Positions 37,091 to 43,398 of a stretch of 64,000 bases of DNA are shown here, one piece after another. The position numbers and the translations under genes were made by a program. This DNA comes from Candidatus Iainarchaeum sp. Lineage in GTDB: Archaea; Iainarchaeota; Iainarchaeia; Iainarchaeales; UBA10219. The number at the start of each line of letters is the position of its first letter. The stretch's first letter is position 1. The stretch is taken from the NCBI GenBank assembly GCA_018304425.1, contig JAGVWE010000003.1, forward strand, positions 1 to 64,000, given 5' to 3'. The notes under the pieces are model-generated. The model saw only the letters and a list, made by a program, of their open reading frames with translations. It was not told the origin of the DNA and searched no databases.

Positions 37091-39286
37091 TCATTTCCGC
37101 AGCTTCAAGTCGAAGACCAGGCAGTCCACCTTCTTGGTTTTCTTCCCGAAGTAGAATACCATGGACTTCCGCAGGTTCCGGTAGAGCCGGAAACCCATGT
37201 TCTTGCAGATGGCAATGCCTTCCGGGTTGTTCCCTTCAAAGCCCAGGGTGACCTTCTTGATTCCCTGTTTCCTCGCGAAACCAATGGCTTCCCGCAGCAG
37301 GGCGGTCGCAATGCCCTTGCCCCTGAACTCTGGCAGCGTGGCAGTGGAGGGGATGAACAGGATGGGGCCATCTGGGACATGGGTCTGCCGCGGGTTGTCC
37401 GTAACGCAGTAGCCGTGCCGCTTCGTCCAGCGCTCGGTCAGGCAGTACCCGATGACCTGGTTGTTGACTTCGGCCGCAAAACAGCCGGCGGGGTGCAGTT
37501 CGAGCCTGGCCGCGTAATGGGACCTGGGGTCGCAGATTCCGCGGTTGAAAGCCTTTCGCTGTATTTCCACGATGCGGTCCAGGTCCCCTGATTTCGCCTT
37601 CCGGATCCTGAACGAGGCAAAGTACTGGCGGACCAGGACGCGCACGATGTTGGACTTGAAGGAATCCCGCTCGGTTCTCGCCACCCGCCCAGCCGCCGCG
37701 GGGATGTGTCCGCCGGCGGAGCCCAGCTCCAGGCCCTGCACGGCTTCCTCCAGCAGGTCGTTGACCTTCACCTTGAAGTCCTGCCGCCGCCCCGAAAAGC
37801 GGAGCAGCTTGTCGCCCTTGTCCTGGATGAGGATGAGCGTCTGCCGGGGGAACAACTGGGTGCTGAGCTTGTTGACCAAGGCGGACTTTATCTCGTACCC
37901 TGACTTTATTTCGTAGAATATGAGGTCGAGTTCGGGGATGAATTCCGCTTTCTGGCGGACGCCCGAGTAAAGCCGCCCGATCTCGCGCTCGAAGGTCTTC
38001 TTGTACCGCATGAACTGGCTTCGCAGGACTTCCCGCCAGTTCCGCGCGCAATAGAATTCCCTGAACAGCCGGGGGAACTCCTTCGGGGCCAGGGACTCGA
38101 CCGAGGAAATGAGTTCCTTGAGTTCGAGGAGCTTTTCAAGCGGCACCTTGTTCCGGTGGCAGGTGTCCTTGATGAACTTCCGCCAGGTGCGAAGGCCCAT
38201 GTCCGCCAGCACGCCGATGGCCGAAATCCAGTCGGTTTCCCGCACGTCGATGACCTGGTTCATGCAGTCGAAGACGAGTTTGGCGGCCGGGTACTTGCTG
38301 CCATCCAAAGCAGAAAGGTACTGGGCCTTGATGAAGATGACTCTTCCGGATGCCAGGTCCTGGTAGATTTTGTGGTGGTCGAAGACCACGAACTGGATGT
38401 TCTTCGGGGCCTCCTCGATGAGCACGGGGTTGGAGTCGATGCCGATGTCGGAAACAATCACCTTGTTGATGTCGTGCTTGACGAGGAGGGGGATTATCTT
38501 TTCCCGCGTCTCGCGGTCCGAGTAGCCGGAGGGAATCTCCAACTCGGCCGGCCTGCCCCGCAGTTTCTCGATGGCGCGGTTGAGGATGCAGGCCGAGGTC
38601 AGGCCATCCGCGTCCAAGTGGTGGACGAGCGCAATGCGGTCCTCCCGGCGGAGGTGGTACATGAAGGTCGTGAGGCGCCCCAAGAGCTTCCGCGCATCCA
38701 GTTGCTTGGGAATCTTGTCCTTTATCTGGCTGCCCAGCCTCAAATCGAGTTCAAAGACCAGGCCGTCCACGGGCTCCCGGTGCAGGGGCTTGAAAAAACC
38801 GGGCACCGTTTTCTTGAGCTTGAACCGGAATTTCGAGTAAAACCCGTGCGCGCGCTTCTGCGTGCGCCGCGAAACCAGCAAGGCCTTCGAGCAATGGTGC
38901 CTGCGTGCAAGGTCCAGCAAGGCGTGCATGAGCTTGGTTCCAATCCCCTTGGCCTGGTGGTCGGGATGCACGGCCACCACGTGAATGTACATGATTTGGC
39001 CGCTGGAGACATGCCGGCCTCGAATGGGTTGGCCGGCTTCCAGGGGATGCATTTCATCCCAAAACTCGGCGCTGAGGTAACCCAAAATCTGGCCCTCCTC
39101 CTCGTATGCGAGGAAGCCATCCCGAAAGGCTTTAAGGCGCTTCCGGAGGGTTTCGCGGCTGTCGGCGATGCCAGGCGGAAAGATGAGGCGCTCGAGCCCG
39201 GCCAGTTGCTTCAAGTCCGTTTCCCGCGCCCGCCTCACCGGCGATACATAGGCGTATCCCGTTGCATGGTCTTTCAACTGGCTCAC
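37091..39286 (-). CDS. GNAT-DHH/DHHA1-GNAT fusion protein
   Basis: 731 residues with three modules. An N-terminal GNAT acetyltransferase (about 15-180) has the acetyl-CoA loop VHPDHQAKGIGTKL. A DHH phosphoesterase (about 195-535) has HLDADG 223-228, SDIG 279-282, FDHH 302-305 and the DHHA1 signature GGHIPAAAG 525-533. A second GNAT (about 558-731) has LPEFRGKGIATALL. DHH/DHHA1 enzymes are RecJ-like nucleases or cyclic/oligonucleotide phosphodiesterases. The paired acetyltransferases suggest acetylation tied to nucleotide or RNA turnover, but the substrates are unknown. GTG start with a GAGGG Shine-Dalgarno and TTTATATA about 42 bases upstream. Confidence 0.87.
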   Translation of the reverse strand: MSQLKDHATGYAYVSPVRRARETDLKQLAGLERLIFPPGIADSRETLRKRLKAFRDGFLAYEEEGQILGYLSAEFWDEMHPLEAGQPIRGRHVSSGQIMYIHVVAVHPDHQAKGIGTKLMHALLDLARRHHCSKALLVSRRTQKRAHGFYSKFRFKLKKTVPGFFKPLHREPVDGLVFELDLRLGSQIKDKIPKQLDARKLLGRLTTFMYHLRREDRIALVHHLDADGLTSACILNRAIEKLRGRPAELEIPSGYSDRETREKIIPLLVKHDINKVIVSDIGIDSNPVLIEEAPKNIQFVVFDHHKIYQDLASGRVIFIKAQYLSALDGSKYPAAKLVFDCMNQVIDVRETDWISAIGVLADMGLRTWRKFIKDTCHRNKVPLEKLLELKELISSVESLAPKEFPRLFREFYCARNWREVLRSQFMRYKKTFEREIGRLYSGVRQKAEFIPELDLIFYEIKSGYEIKSALVNKLSTQLFPRQTLILIQDKGDKLLRFSGRRQDFKVKVNDLLEEAVQGLELGSAGGHIPAAAGRVARTERDSFKSNIVRVLVRQYFASFRIRKAKSGDLDRIVEIQRKAFNRGICDPRSHYAARLELHPAGCFAAEVNNQVIGYCLTERWTKRHGYCVTDNPRQTHVPDGPILFIPSTATLPEFRGKGIATALLREAIGFARKQGIKKVTLGFEGNNPEGIAICKNMGFRLYRNLRKSMVFYFGKKTKKVDCLVFDLKLRK

Positions 39287-39420
39287 CCCTCGCTCTCCAA
39301 GCCATCCATACTATGGTTTGAACCCCTATATAAACAATGGGTTGATTTCCTTGCCTTGCCCGGCCCAAGAAAACCTTATTAAGCTGAACCCCCATACGTT
39401 AAATCCGGTGGGTGCGGCAA

Positions 39421-39595: not shown

Positions 39596-40423
39596 CTATT
39601 CGGCGACCTTGGAAGTGCCGAGTTCCCGAATACGCACCTCGCACAGTCTAGCCCAGGACGGCATCAGTTCCCGGATGGTAAATTCGTCCTCGGCCGCTGG
39701 CCGGCCTGCAAGCCGCTTGCCCAATGCCCGGTAACCCGCCATGAGTTGCCTCCTCTGGTTTCGGGTCAAACCGATTTTCTGCACCCACGCGAGTTGCTCC
39801 ACTTCGTAGAGCGCTCCCACCGATGCCGCCAACTCCCGGGCTTCCTTCAGCCTGGCTTCAGCCGCTTCCAGCTCCACCCGAGTCCGTGCAAGCGCCTTGG
39901 ACAGTTTCGATTCGCTCAGGCGCTCGAACAACTTGTGCTTCAGGTTAAACTCCAGGGCCTCCCGTTGAACCTTGTAGGCGTTGATTCGCTTGCGCCATAG
40001 CTCCACGTGATTCAAGAAAAAATCCTTCATGGACTCTGGTGAGGAGCCGATGGTCCAAAAACGGGAGAATTTTCGCCCAAATTCCCTGGCGTTGGCATCC
40101 GTTCCATTGTAGTCCGCCAACAGGCCGTTGGCCCTGCGCCGGAGTTGTTCCCGCGTCTCGCGCCGTTCCCGCCGCCGGCCCATGGCCCGCGCGCGGTACC
40201 GCACGTACTCTTCGTAGCCGGGCTCGAACTCGGAGTAGGCACGCGATTCAAAGGGCTTGGTCCGCAGGTCCTTGTACATGGGCCGCTTGGCCGGGGGAAG
40301 GCCTTGCTCCCGGCGCAACTGATACTGGGCGCGGTAACGGGCCAGCCTCCTGCGCTGCACGAGGCGAAAATAGTTGCCCCGCTCCATCAAGGTGGGCTTC
40401 CGCCTGGGTGCCGGGCTTACCAT
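39596..40423 (-). CDS. Orphan helical protein with basic N-terminus
   Basis: 275 residues from the ATG at 40423, which lies 27 bases after a palindromic TTTATAAA. Very Arg-rich start (MVSPAPRRKPTLMERGNYF), then long amphipathic helices. The segment LEAAEARLKEARELAASVGALYEVEQL weakly echoes the region shared by the next two upstream genes (A-x-A-A-x-A-x-E-M-K-x-x-F). It could be a divergent third copy, but that is not certain. No enzymatic motif. Confidence 0.6.
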   Translation of the reverse strand: MVSPAPRRKPTLMERGNYFRLVQRRRLARYRAQYQLRREQGLPPAKRPMYKDLRTKPFESRAYSEFEPGYEEYVRYRARAMGRRRERRETREQLRRRANGLLADYNGTDANAREFGRKFSRFWTIGSSPESMKDFFLNHVELWRKRINAYKVQREALEFNLKHKLFERLSESKLSKALARTRVELEAAEARLKEARELAASVGALYEVEQLAWVQKIGLTRNQRRQLMAGYRALGKRLAGRPAAEDEFTIRELMPSWARLCEVRIRELGTSKVAE

Positions 40424-40490
40424 AACCGATATACGGCGTTTCCGGTTTATAAACTTGCCTGGCCCCGTTCCTCGTCCATTGGCTGGAAGA

Positions 40491-41099
40491 TTACGCGGTG
40501 CCACTACTGAACTTTTTTATTTCCGAAGTTAGATAACCTTCAAGCAAGGCGAGCAAGCCGTGCGGATAGTCCGATCCACGGAGCCTCCCAGCATTGACTT
40601 CGGCGCGGTGTTGCCTGAATGCATTCAAGGCACGTTGAAAGAGTTCGGCCACGCTTTTTCGTTGTGGGCGAAGAAGCCCAGCTGGATCCAAGCCAGGGCC
40701 CTGTCGGAAATAGTCCAGGTCAGCAAATACCGCCTTCATTTCCCCTGCAAAGGCGGCACTTGCTCTTGCCATCGTTATGCCCTGCCTGGCTGCCTCAATT
40801 TCTGCTGGGGGGCGGCCCTCAAGGGATGCAAGCTGATTAAACAGCTCGGCTTTGGCCACTTCGTGTTCTCCTCTTATGCGCTCCATGTCGAAAAATTCGT
40901 GCCACATCACGGAATGCACGTTCGTTCCCGCTTGCAAAATGCCACTCGCAATGGATCCCGTGAGGTGCCTTGCATTGGCCAAGTCACGTTGAAGCCCGCC
41001 AACCGCACGCCATTTCTCATCAATCAACTGTTGCGTGCGAGGGTTAGCTCTTCTCGGCCTTCCCCTCCTTGGATCCTCAGGCCTCCGCTCTAACGGCAT
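40491..41099 (-). CDS. Orphan protein, copy A of a tandem paralogous pair
   Basis: 202 residues from the ATG at 41099. Disordered Arg/Pro-rich N-terminus (MPLERRPEDPRRGRPRRANP), then helical. Its second half aligns with the upstream gene at 41151-41771: A-R-A-S-A-A-F-A-G-E-M-K-A-V-F here against A-K-A-A-A-A-Y-A-Q-E-M-K-G-I-F there, and F-Q-R-A-L-N-A-F against L-K-R-A-L-S-L-L, then L-L-x-x-L-E/L-E-R. TTTAAATA at 41121-41128 is 25 bases upstream. Function unknown. Confidence 0.68.
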   Translation of the reverse strand: MPLERRPEDPRRGRPRRANPRTQQLIDEKWRAVGGLQRDLANARHLTGSIASGILQAGTNVHSVMWHEFFDMERIRGEHEVAKAELFNQLASLEGRPPAEIEAARQGITMARASAAFAGEMKAVFADLDYFRQGPGLDPAGLLRPQRKSVAELFQRALNAFRQHRAEVNAGRLRGSDYPHGLLALLEGYLTSEIKKFSSGTA

Positions 41100-41120
41100 A
41101 AAAGAATTGCCGCTGACCAA

Positions 41121-41128
41121 TTTAAATA
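41121..41128 (-). promoter_or_regulatory. TATA element of paralog A, duplicated with the gene
   Basis: Together with the following leader, the 33 bases ending in the start codon match the promoter of paralog B (41769-41801) at 26 of 33 positions without gaps. Confidence 0.6.
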
Positions 41129-41150
41129 GTTTCCAGTCGCCGTAATCCGG

Positions 41151-41771
41151 TTAGCCGCCTTCAAATCTTCCAGCCACGACGCTCAAATGTCGCTCTAACA
41201 GCATTCGCACTTCCCGGTCATTGTCTGATTCATGGATGCTTCCGGCCGCGATTTGCCTACGATGCTCGTCTAACAAACTCAGGGCACGCTTTAAAGCCCC
41301 TTGTACCTCGGCTCGTTGCGATGGTGAAAGCTTACTTGGAATCAAGCCAACCTTTGCATCCAAATCAGTTAGTCTAAAGAATATGCCCTTCATTTCCTGT
41401 GCATAGGCAGCCGCTGCCTTGGCCTGGTTAAGAACACTAGCAGCCTCCACCCTTGCCCCTGATCCCATTTGTTTCAAGAGAGTCGCTCTACGAACCAGCT
41501 TTTCTCTTCCAACGTTAAAATCATGCACGACGGAAAGCGTAGCAAAATAATCAGCCCACGGACGAGGGTTGGCAACATCCGCCCAGTTCCATACTTCAGC
41601 CTGTGCCAATTCAAGAGCCACCCGCATGGATTCCATCCTTCGGTTTTGCTCCCCAATGCCTTCCAGGGTTTGTCGATAAAGCTGTGCCCTGCGGGTTGCC
41701 CCCGCCGTTGGTTTCCCTTGACCCCGTCGTTCCTCAGGCCGCCGCCTGTCAACCCGCTTGTCAACCGCCAT
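41151..41771 (-). CDS. Orphan protein, copy B of a tandem paralogous pair
   Basis: 206 residues from the ATG at 41771; an earlier in-frame start would run into tldD. Basic N-terminus (MAVDKRVDRRRPEERRGQGK), then helical with a Trp-containing segment (AEVWNWADVANPRPWADYF). Similar to copy A over the C-terminal 90 residues. It shares the palindromic ATTTAAAT promoter element with the divergent tldD gene. Confidence 0.68.
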   Translation of the reverse strand: MAVDKRVDRRRPEERRGQGKPTAGATRRAQLYRQTLEGIGEQNRRMESMRVALELAQAEVWNWADVANPRPWADYFATLSVVHDFNVGREKLVRRATLLKQMGSGARVEAASVLNQAKAAAAYAQEMKGIFFRLTDLDAKVGLIPSKLSPSQRAEVQGALKRALSLLDEHRRQIAAGSIHESDNDREVRMLLERHLSVVAGRFEGG

Positions 41772-41791
41772 AAAAGAACTATTCCTAACCA

Positions 41792-41799
41792 ATTTAAAT
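41792..41799. promoter_or_regulatory. Shared palindromic TATA element (paralog B / tldD)
   Basis: ATTTAAAT centred about 25 bases from the minus-strand ATG (41771) and 28 bases from the plus-strand tldD ATG (41824), so one element fits both leaderless starts. Confidence 0.6.
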
Positions 41800-41823
41800 A
41801 TCTTTACTGGCTGTTTAAAAGCA

Positions 41824-43398
41824 ATGCAAGCCAAACTACTGGGCATCGAGGCCTTGGAGCCGGCGAAGGACGTCATTGTCAAGGCCCTCGACGAGGCGAA
41901 GCGCAAGGCCTACCTCGCCTATGCGGATGTGCGCCTGGACTTGGGGGAAGGCAAAGCGGTTTTCGCCTTGCAAGGCAATGCCAAGGGCGCAACGGAAGAC
42001 AATGAAATGAGTTGCGGGGTCCGCGTTTACGTTGAGAAGGGCGGCGTGGCCTCGGCGGGTTTTGTCGGCCGGAGCCTTGGCGAACAGGAACTGAACGGCC
42101 TGGCCCAGGTGCTCAAGGAGATGCACGGCCTGGCCTACAAGCGCGCCAGGGCGAACCAAGCACATAAGCGAGCCCTGGCGAAGAAATACAAGTTTTTCGG
42201 GAAGAGCCTGACCGCGGGAAAGCTGGCCCCGGTCAAGGCCTGCGTGGACACGCTTAAGCCCAGTTTCAAGCGGAACCCACGCGACTACTCCTTCGAGGAA
42301 CTGGTGCGGCGCACCGAGCGCTGCAGCCAACTGGTCCAAAAGCTGCCGGGCATGGCCTCGAACAGCGTTTCCATCGTGACCGGCCTGGGAAGGCAATTGT
42401 TCGCCAGCACGGAGGGCGCGTTCATCGACGACTCCAATGCCCTAACCCAGGGATTCCTCTTCGTGACCGCGAAAGGCAAGGCAGTTGAAACCTTTTACGA
42501 GTGGAACGGCGCCTATGCAGGCCTGGAAGTGCTCGAAGGCGAGAACGGCTTCCGGATGAACTTCGAGGACTTCTGCCAATACATCGCCGAAGGCACCATC
42601 GAGGTCTCGAATGCACCCGCCATGAAGACCACGGAAAAGCCAATGACCGTCATCTGCGACCCGCGCTTCAACGCCCTGGTCTCCCACGAGATCTGCGGCC
42701 ACCCCAGCGAAGCCGACCGCGCCCTGAAACGCGAGGCGGCCTGGGCTGGAAGGGCGTGGTGGTTCAGGGGCATGGACGACAACGAATTCGGGAAACCCGT
42801 GGCCTCGGAACAGGTCAGCGTCTTCTCGGACCCCAGCCTGCAAGGCTATGGCAATTACAAGTACGACGACGAGGGCGTGCCAGCGAAGAAGGTCTACAAC
42901 ATCAAGGAAGGGCGGCTGAACGCGTTCATCAACTCAAGGGAAACGGCCACCATCCTGGGCCAGGAACCCAATGGCGGGATGAGAGCCGCGAGCGCTATGC
43001 AGGTGCCGCTCATCCGCATGAACAACACCTGCCTCGACAAGGGCGACTGGTCGAAGGACGAAATCTTCAAGGACACCCGGGAAGGCTATTACCTGTTCGG
43101 CCAGAAAACGCCTTCCATTGGGGAGACGCGGCAGAACTTCAAGATCACCTGCTGGAAGCTGTACAAGGTCGAGAACGGCGAATTGACGCAGCTCTACCGC
43201 ATGGGCGGGATTACTGCCGACTCGGCGGCCTACCTGAAAAGCATCGACGCCGCTGCGGATGACCTGCACGTGCACAACATCCCCAACTGCGGGAAGGGAA
43301 CCCCCATGCAGAGCATGATGGTCGGGAACGGCGGCCCGCACACGCGGGGAAAGGCCATTGTCACCGGCGCCCACGCCGAGGGAAGGGGCAGCCTATGA
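41824..43398 (+). CDS. tldD: TldD-family metalloprotease
   Basis: 524 residues. The catalytic subunit of the TldD/TldE heterodimer, carrying the zinc motif HExxxH at 288-293 (HEICGH) and a C-terminal MSMMVGNGGP-like glycine-rich region. TldD/E degrades unfolded peptides and, in bacteria, matures some microcins and antitoxins. The ATG at 41824 fits the promoter; the frame is open slightly upstream. It overlaps tldE by four bases (ATGA). Confidence 0.93.
   Translation: MQAKLLGIEALEPAKDVIVKALDEAKRKAYLAYADVRLDLGEGKAVFALQGNAKGATEDNEMSCGVRVYVEKGGVASAGFVGRSLGEQELNGLAQVLKEMHGLAYKRARANQAHKRALAKKYKFFGKSLTAGKLAPVKACVDTLKPSFKRNPRDYSFEELVRRTERCSQLVQKLPGMASNSVSIVTGLGRQLFASTEGAFIDDSNALTQGFLFVTAKGKAVETFYEWNGAYAGLEVLEGENGFRMNFEDFCQYIAEGTIEVSNAPAMKTTEKPMTVICDPRFNALVSHEICGHPSEADRALKREAAWAGRAWWFRGMDDNEFGKPVASEQVSVFSDPSLQGYGNYKYDDEGVPAKKVYNIKEGRLNAFINSRETATILGQEPNGGMRAASAMQVPLIRMNNTCLDKGDWSKDEIFKDTREGYYLFGQKTPSIGETRQNFKITCWKLYKVENGELTQLYRMGGITADSAAYLKSIDAAADDLHVHNIPNCGKGTPMQSMMVGNGGPHTRGKAIVTGAHAEGRGSL

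What the first reader, a model, noticed from the sequence alone, without database searches (positions are those of the whole stretch)
37091..39286. GNAT-DHH/DHHA1-GNAT triple fusion
One 731-residue polypeptide carries a DHH phosphoesterase core with all major motifs (HLDADG, SDIG, FDHH, GGHIPAAAG) flanked by two separate acetyltransferase domains, each with its own acetyl-CoA loop. I know of no characterised enzyme with this order. The fusion suggests acetylation linked to RNA, DNA or cyclic-nucleotide turnover, for instance modification of a tRNA, a nucleotide or the partner domain.
Basis: partly seen in the sequence, partly recalled or inferred. Interest (0 to 1): 0.78.

Follow-up and report, generated by a model that had tools for sequence, protein, structure and literature searches.

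The report
Archaeal nuclease flanked by two acetyltransferases
One uncultured archaeon has fused an ordinary short archaeal nuclease-type enzyme to two acetyltransferase domains, one at each end; the fusion looks real but was seen in this one genome only, so it does not yet show that acetylation and nucleic-acid turnover are linked.

Summary
All DHH catalytic residues are kept, and both GNATs keep an acetyl-CoA loop.

The genome belongs to the Iainarchaeota (Diapherotrites) and is the only member of its family held. The DHH part is not new: it is the local copy of a compact archaeal DHH/DHHA1 family (about 350-400 residues) found in most genomes of the order and in a second archaeal phylum. 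The fused copy sits in the ancestral tldE-tldD-DHH-purQ-purL locus. No relative found carries a GNAT, and none of the fetched loci has one next to it. The two GNATs are related to each other (29%) and to rare standalone archaeal GNATs. So this is a lineage-specific double fusion onto a conserved enzyme. I found no other instance in about 830 archaeal genomes, phages, plasmids or viral contigs, and no paper describing it.

Best guess: a Mn-dependent nuclease or pAp-phosphatase-type core carrying two semi-independent N-acetyltransferases of unknown substrate. A functional link is possible but untested. The genome seems to lack canonical archaeal RecJ, so the fused enzyme may be its only RecJ-like protein.

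The parts
37091..39286 (-). whole CDS, 731 aa, GTG start, TGA stop
38732..39244 (-). GNAT1 (residues 15-185), acetyl-CoA loop Q-A-K-G-I-G, Tyr kept at the usual general-acid position
37619..38704 (-). DHH/DHHA1 core (residues about 195-556)
38603..38623 (-). DHH motif I, HHLDADG (residues 222-228)
   Evidence: D225, D227, G228 invariant in 32 sequences
37652..37924 (-). DHHA1 subdomain (residues about 455-545), with SGRR (R500) and GGH (525-527)
37094..37618 (-). GNAT2 (residues 557-731), acetyl-CoA loop R-G-K-G-I-A, Cys in place of the usual Tyr; 29% identical to GNAT1
39327..39334 (-). TATA-like box TTTATATA, about 40 bases upstream of the start codon
   Evidence: sequence
39295..39298 (-). 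Shine-Dalgarno-like GGAG
   Evidence: sequence

Best explanation
A lineage-specific double gene fusion. The middle is the genome's copy of a conserved compact archaeal DHH/DHHA1 phosphoesterase, predicted to be an active Mn-dependent enzyme: four aspartates and the DHH histidines hold two metals, R500 and the GGH motif of DHHA1 hold the substrate phosphate, and mononucleotides are released from short RNA or DNA ends, or the 3' phosphate is removed from pAp. To each end was added a GNAT domain of one small archaeal subfamily; each is predicted to bind acetyl-CoA and to acetylate an amine of unknown identity. Most likely the GNATs work as semi-independent modules kept near the DHH substrate or its complex (RNA, DNA or bound proteins). 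Shown here: the architecture, conserved catalytic residues, orthology and synteny of the core, and absence of the fusion in the relatives found. Inferred: all activities, the substrates and any coupling.
For: Domains and motifs; catalytic set invariant across 32 sequences; the core closest to archaeal RecJ by profile (5x4h 1.8e-25, 7bhi, RecJ2 6tvv) and to RecJ, RecJ2 and PAP phosphatase 8a8k by fold (Z 30-32, tied; 8a8k covers the whole compact chain, TMt 0.82). Standalone orthologues in most genomes of the order, best 46% in G017. Same gene order tldE-tldD-DHH-purQ-purL in the window and in G017, G013 and G021 (tldD of G021 read from the ORF list). The family keeps company with nucleotide enzymes: dCTP deaminase directly downstream in 4 loci, a fusion to NrdR with a nearby dCTP deaminase in another phylum, and a fusion to an HD domain. 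The core groups with the order's standalone copies (100/99). GNAT fold.
Against: No activity is known to me for any member of this short DHH family. GNAT2 lacks the usual tyrosine. The relative placement of the three parts was not predicted with confidence, because the GNATs had low pLDDT in the whole-protein model. One genome only.
Confidence: 0.62

Rival explanations
1. A functionally coupled machine: the GNATs acetylate the nucleotide, RNA end or tRNA that the DHH core then cuts (or protect it from cutting).
For: Three modules in one chain, all with their ligand motifs kept; the DHH family sits beside nucleotide and DNA enzymes.
Against: No repeated GNAT-DHH association in any relative found; the nearest solved folds of GNAT1 are protein N-acetyltransferases (Ard1/Naa) and GNATL domains, with no sign of a nucleic-acid-acetylating family.
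Confidence: 0.13
2. The GNATs act on protein partners or on the DHH core itself and regulate nuclease activity by lysine or N-terminal acetylation.
For: The closest solved folds and profiles for the GNATs include archaeal Ard1 and other protein N-acetyltransferases.
Against: GNAT folds are all alike, so fold closeness says little on substrate; no target known.
Confidence: 0.15
3. A neutral fusion: the GNATs are passengers with their own function and no effect on the DHH core.
For: Restricted to one lineage; this DHH family is also fused once to NrdR and once to an HD domain, so it tolerates N-terminal additions.
Against: Both GNATs are intact and kept at both ends, although diverged from each other (29%).
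Confidence: 0.06
4. An assembly or binning artefact that joined separate genes.
For: The genome is a draft in 7 contigs; the fusion was found once.
Against: Two independent in-frame joins at domain borders, uniform codon signature, own TATA box and Shine-Dalgarno, and the ancestral gene order around it on a 202 kb contig.
Confidence: 0.04

Closest known systems
Compact archaeal DHH/DHHA1 family of DPANN archaea (unnamed; standalone orthologues, e.g. G017, L003)
   Same: 46% identity over the core, same catalytic residues, same gene neighbourhood
   Different: no GNAT domains; about 340-410 aa alone
Archaeal RecJ1/RecJ2, GAN (MjaRecJ2 6tvv/7ykv, PfuRecJ 5x4h, MthRecJ-Cdc45 7bhi)
   Same: best profile matches and fold Z about 28-31; same catalytic motifs. 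MjaRecJ2 is a 3'-5' exonuclease preferring ssRNA (PMC5615345)
   Different: the core is about 360 aa rather than 430-480; scores 44-55 bits against the RecJ_archaeal cut-off of 360; no GNAT
PAP phosphatase of Methanothermococcus thermolithotrophicus (MtPAPP, 8a8k; PMC10322725)
   Same: compact DHH-linker-DHHA1 fold, TMt 0.82, Z 30.5
   Different: only 17% identity; AMP-binding residues not compared; no GNAT
NrnA/nanoRNase and c-di-AMP phosphodiesterases (3w5w, 5o4z, 8iu7)
   Same: DHH/DHHA1 fold
   Different: lower fold scores (Z 18-21) and weak or no profile match
Ard1/Naa N-acetyltransferases and GNATL domains (CurA, GphF)
   Same: GNAT fold (4pv6 TMt 0.90, 2ree TMq 0.82)
   Different: 15-22% identity; an insert before strand 4 shared with a few standalone archaeal GNATs (L104, L105, L118)

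Membership tests
DHH/DHHA1 phosphoesterase superfamily | DHH motifs I-IV with metal-binding D/H residues | tested here: met
   D225, D227, D280, D303-H304-H305, D362 invariant; PF01368 over cut-off
DHH/DHHA1 phosphoesterase superfamily | DHHA1 domain with GGH motif and conserved R | tested here: met
   R500, G525-G526-H527 invariant; PF02272 matched below its cut-off; fold agrees
Canonical archaeal RecJ (NCBIfam NF053576) | score over the curated cut-off of 360 bits across the full-length profile | tested here: not met
   54.6 bits, best stretch only in the DHH part
GAN (NCBIfam NF053575) | score over the curated cut-off of 850 bits | tested here: not met
   27.8 bits
PAP phosphatase of the MtPAPP type | compact DHH-linker-DHHA1 fold | tested here: met
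   8a8k TMt 0.82, Z 30.5
PAP phosphatase of the MtPAPP type | conserved nucleotide-binding residues and activity on pAp | not tested
   residue-level comparison with 8a8k not made; activity needs an assay
GNAT acetyltransferases (both ends) | Acetyltransf_1 profile and acetyl-CoA loop Q/R-x-x-G-x-G/A | tested here: met
   QAKGIG and RGKGIA in the sequence
RimI (TIGR01575) | score over the curated cut-off of 86.4 bits | tested here: not met
   68.2 bits for the whole protein, two stretches

The most novel reading that the evidence does not exclude
A trifunctional enzyme in which two acetyl-CoA-binding domains and a RecJ/PAP-phosphatase-type core act in one pathway, for instance acetylation of RNA, a nucleotide or a replication protein coupled to its turnover, or handling of the 3'-phosphoadenosine group that pAp and CoA share; and this enzyme stands in for the canonical RecJ that the genome seems to lack.
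Probability: 0.1. Interest if true: 0.7.

Novelty: new variant of a known kind. Interest (0 to 1): 0.42.

Why it matters
The domain order GNAT-DHH/DHHA1-GNAT was not found in any other genome or paper searched. It offers a direct test of whether acetyl transfer and nucleotide or nucleic-acid cleavage are coupled. More broadly, it draws attention to an uncharacterised compact DHH family common in DPANN archaea that sits next to, or is fused with, nucleotide-metabolism proteins (dCTP deaminase, NrdR, HD), and that may be the only RecJ-like protein in genomes that seem to lack canonical RecJ.

Tried and rejected
Search for the fusion elsewhere: about 830 distinct archaeal genomes, one scan of genome contigs, phages, plasmids and viral contigs: none. 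Two of these searches matched nothing at all, so they say little. Bacterial genomes were covered only by the pattern scan. Long frames that looked like candidates proved otherwise: G045 (518 aa frame; the match is interrupted by a stop, the fetched DHH frame is 368 aa), G043 and G021 (N-terminal overhang without a GNAT match), G137 (NrdR fusion), G095 (HD fusion). Adjacent GNAT genes as ancestors of the fusion: none within the fetched flanks. Internal duplication versus two acquisitions of the GNATs: the tree could not decide. Relative packing of the three domains: not predicted with confidence. Literature on a GNAT-DHH fusion: no paper found.

Full report
What is there. The reported ORF is real but lies on the minus strand, 37091-39286, 731 codons from a GTG. 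Pfam finds a GNAT at each end and DHH plus DHHA1 in the middle. Every DHH catalytic residue is invariant between the window and 31 relatives. The whole-protein model is confident for residues 196-557 (pLDDT mostly above 90) and poor for the GNATs, for which the alignment held no relatives. GNAT1 modelled alone with 12 relatives reached 91.7 and matches archaeal Ard1 and GNATL folds. The three parts share one codon signature with the neighbouring genes, and a TATA-like box and GGAG lie upstream of the GTG, so one transcript and one polypeptide are likely. Reads were not available.

Where it comes from. The genome (G000, 1.48 Mb, 7 contigs) belongs to an order whose named matches are mostly Candidatus Diapherotrites/Iainarchaeota, and it is the only member of its family held. 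A DHH orthologue stands alone in most genomes of the order, best 46% in G017. Flipped to one orientation, the window reads tldE-tldD-DHH-purQ-purL, and the same order is found in G017, G013 and G021 (gene identities checked for the window and G017, purS of the window; tldD of G021 read from the ORF list). So the fused gene sits in the ancestral locus, and the GNATs were added to it there. The core groups with the order's standalone copies with support 100/99, its exact place within them being unresolved.

What the core is. By sequence profile the nearest solved proteins are archaeal RecJs (5x4h 1.8e-25, 7bhi, 6tvv), then bacterial RecJ and the PAP phosphatase 8a8k. By fold, S. aureus RecJ, RecJ2 of M. 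jannaschii and PAP phosphatase are tied at Z 30-32, while NrnA and c-di-AMP phosphodiesterases score about 18-21. Foldseek gives 8a8k TMt 0.82, so the core has the compact two-domain form. It fails the curated cut-offs for archaeal RecJ and GAN. MjaRecJ2 is a 3'-5' exonuclease preferring ssRNA (PMC5615345), and MtPAPP hydrolyses pAp with Mn (PMC10322725); either chemistry is possible here. The 2012 survey of archaeal DHH proteins predicts nanoRNase-like activity for a clade of compact archaeal members (PMC3307487); I did not assign this family to one of its arCOGs. Gene context favours nucleotide metabolism: a dCTP deaminase overlaps or abuts the DHH gene on the same strand in four loci of the order, and in another archaeal phylum one member is fused to NrdR, near a dCTP deaminase and an HD gene, and another to an HD domain.

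What the GNATs are. They are 29% identical over their full length and share an insert before strand 4 with a few standalone archaeal GNATs (L104, L105, L118). Whether they arose by duplication or by two acquisitions is undecided. GNAT1 keeps the usual tyrosine, GNAT2 has cysteine there. No substrate can be named.

How it may work. The core most likely removes mononucleotides or a 3' phosphate by two-metal catalysis, and the GNATs most likely acetylate amines independently, perhaps on partners brought near by the core. Coupling is conceivable but rests on the fusion alone, since no relative repeats the pairing. One further observation raises the stakes: canonical archaeal RecJ was found over its cut-off in 36 of 75 genomes of the order but not in this one, where the only other DHH gene found is a 351-residue protein. 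The genome is 92.55% complete, so this absence is suggestive, not proven.

Verdict. The fusion is genuine as far as sequence can tell, was not found elsewhere, and is a new arrangement of known parts. It merits a biochemical test more than a claim of a new pathway.

Noticed in passing
L100:3002-4555 (G137) and L101:2266-3807 (G095): Relatives of the DHH core fused to NrdR (zinc ribbon plus ATP cone) and to an HD domain; the NrdR fusion lies downstream of a dCTP deaminase and an HD gene.
   Followed up: partly
L048, L051, L053, L056: dCTP deaminase gene overlapping or directly downstream of the standalone DHH gene on the same strand.
   Followed up: partly
G000 (whole genome), order-wide: No canonical archaeal RecJ over the cut-off in G000, in family f8 or in several other genomes of the order, while the short DHH is usually present; the short DHH may stand in for it.
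   Followed up: partly
G025, G009, G064, G046, G015, G043, G006: Canonical RecJ frames of 916-1020 aa; in G006, G015 and G043 the profile match is split within the frame, which suggests an intein-like insertion.
   Followed up: no
window 39596-41906, minus strand: Three ORFs between the fusion gene and tldD without any Pfam match; no such genes lie between tldD and the DHH gene in the G017 locus (L043).
   Followed up: no
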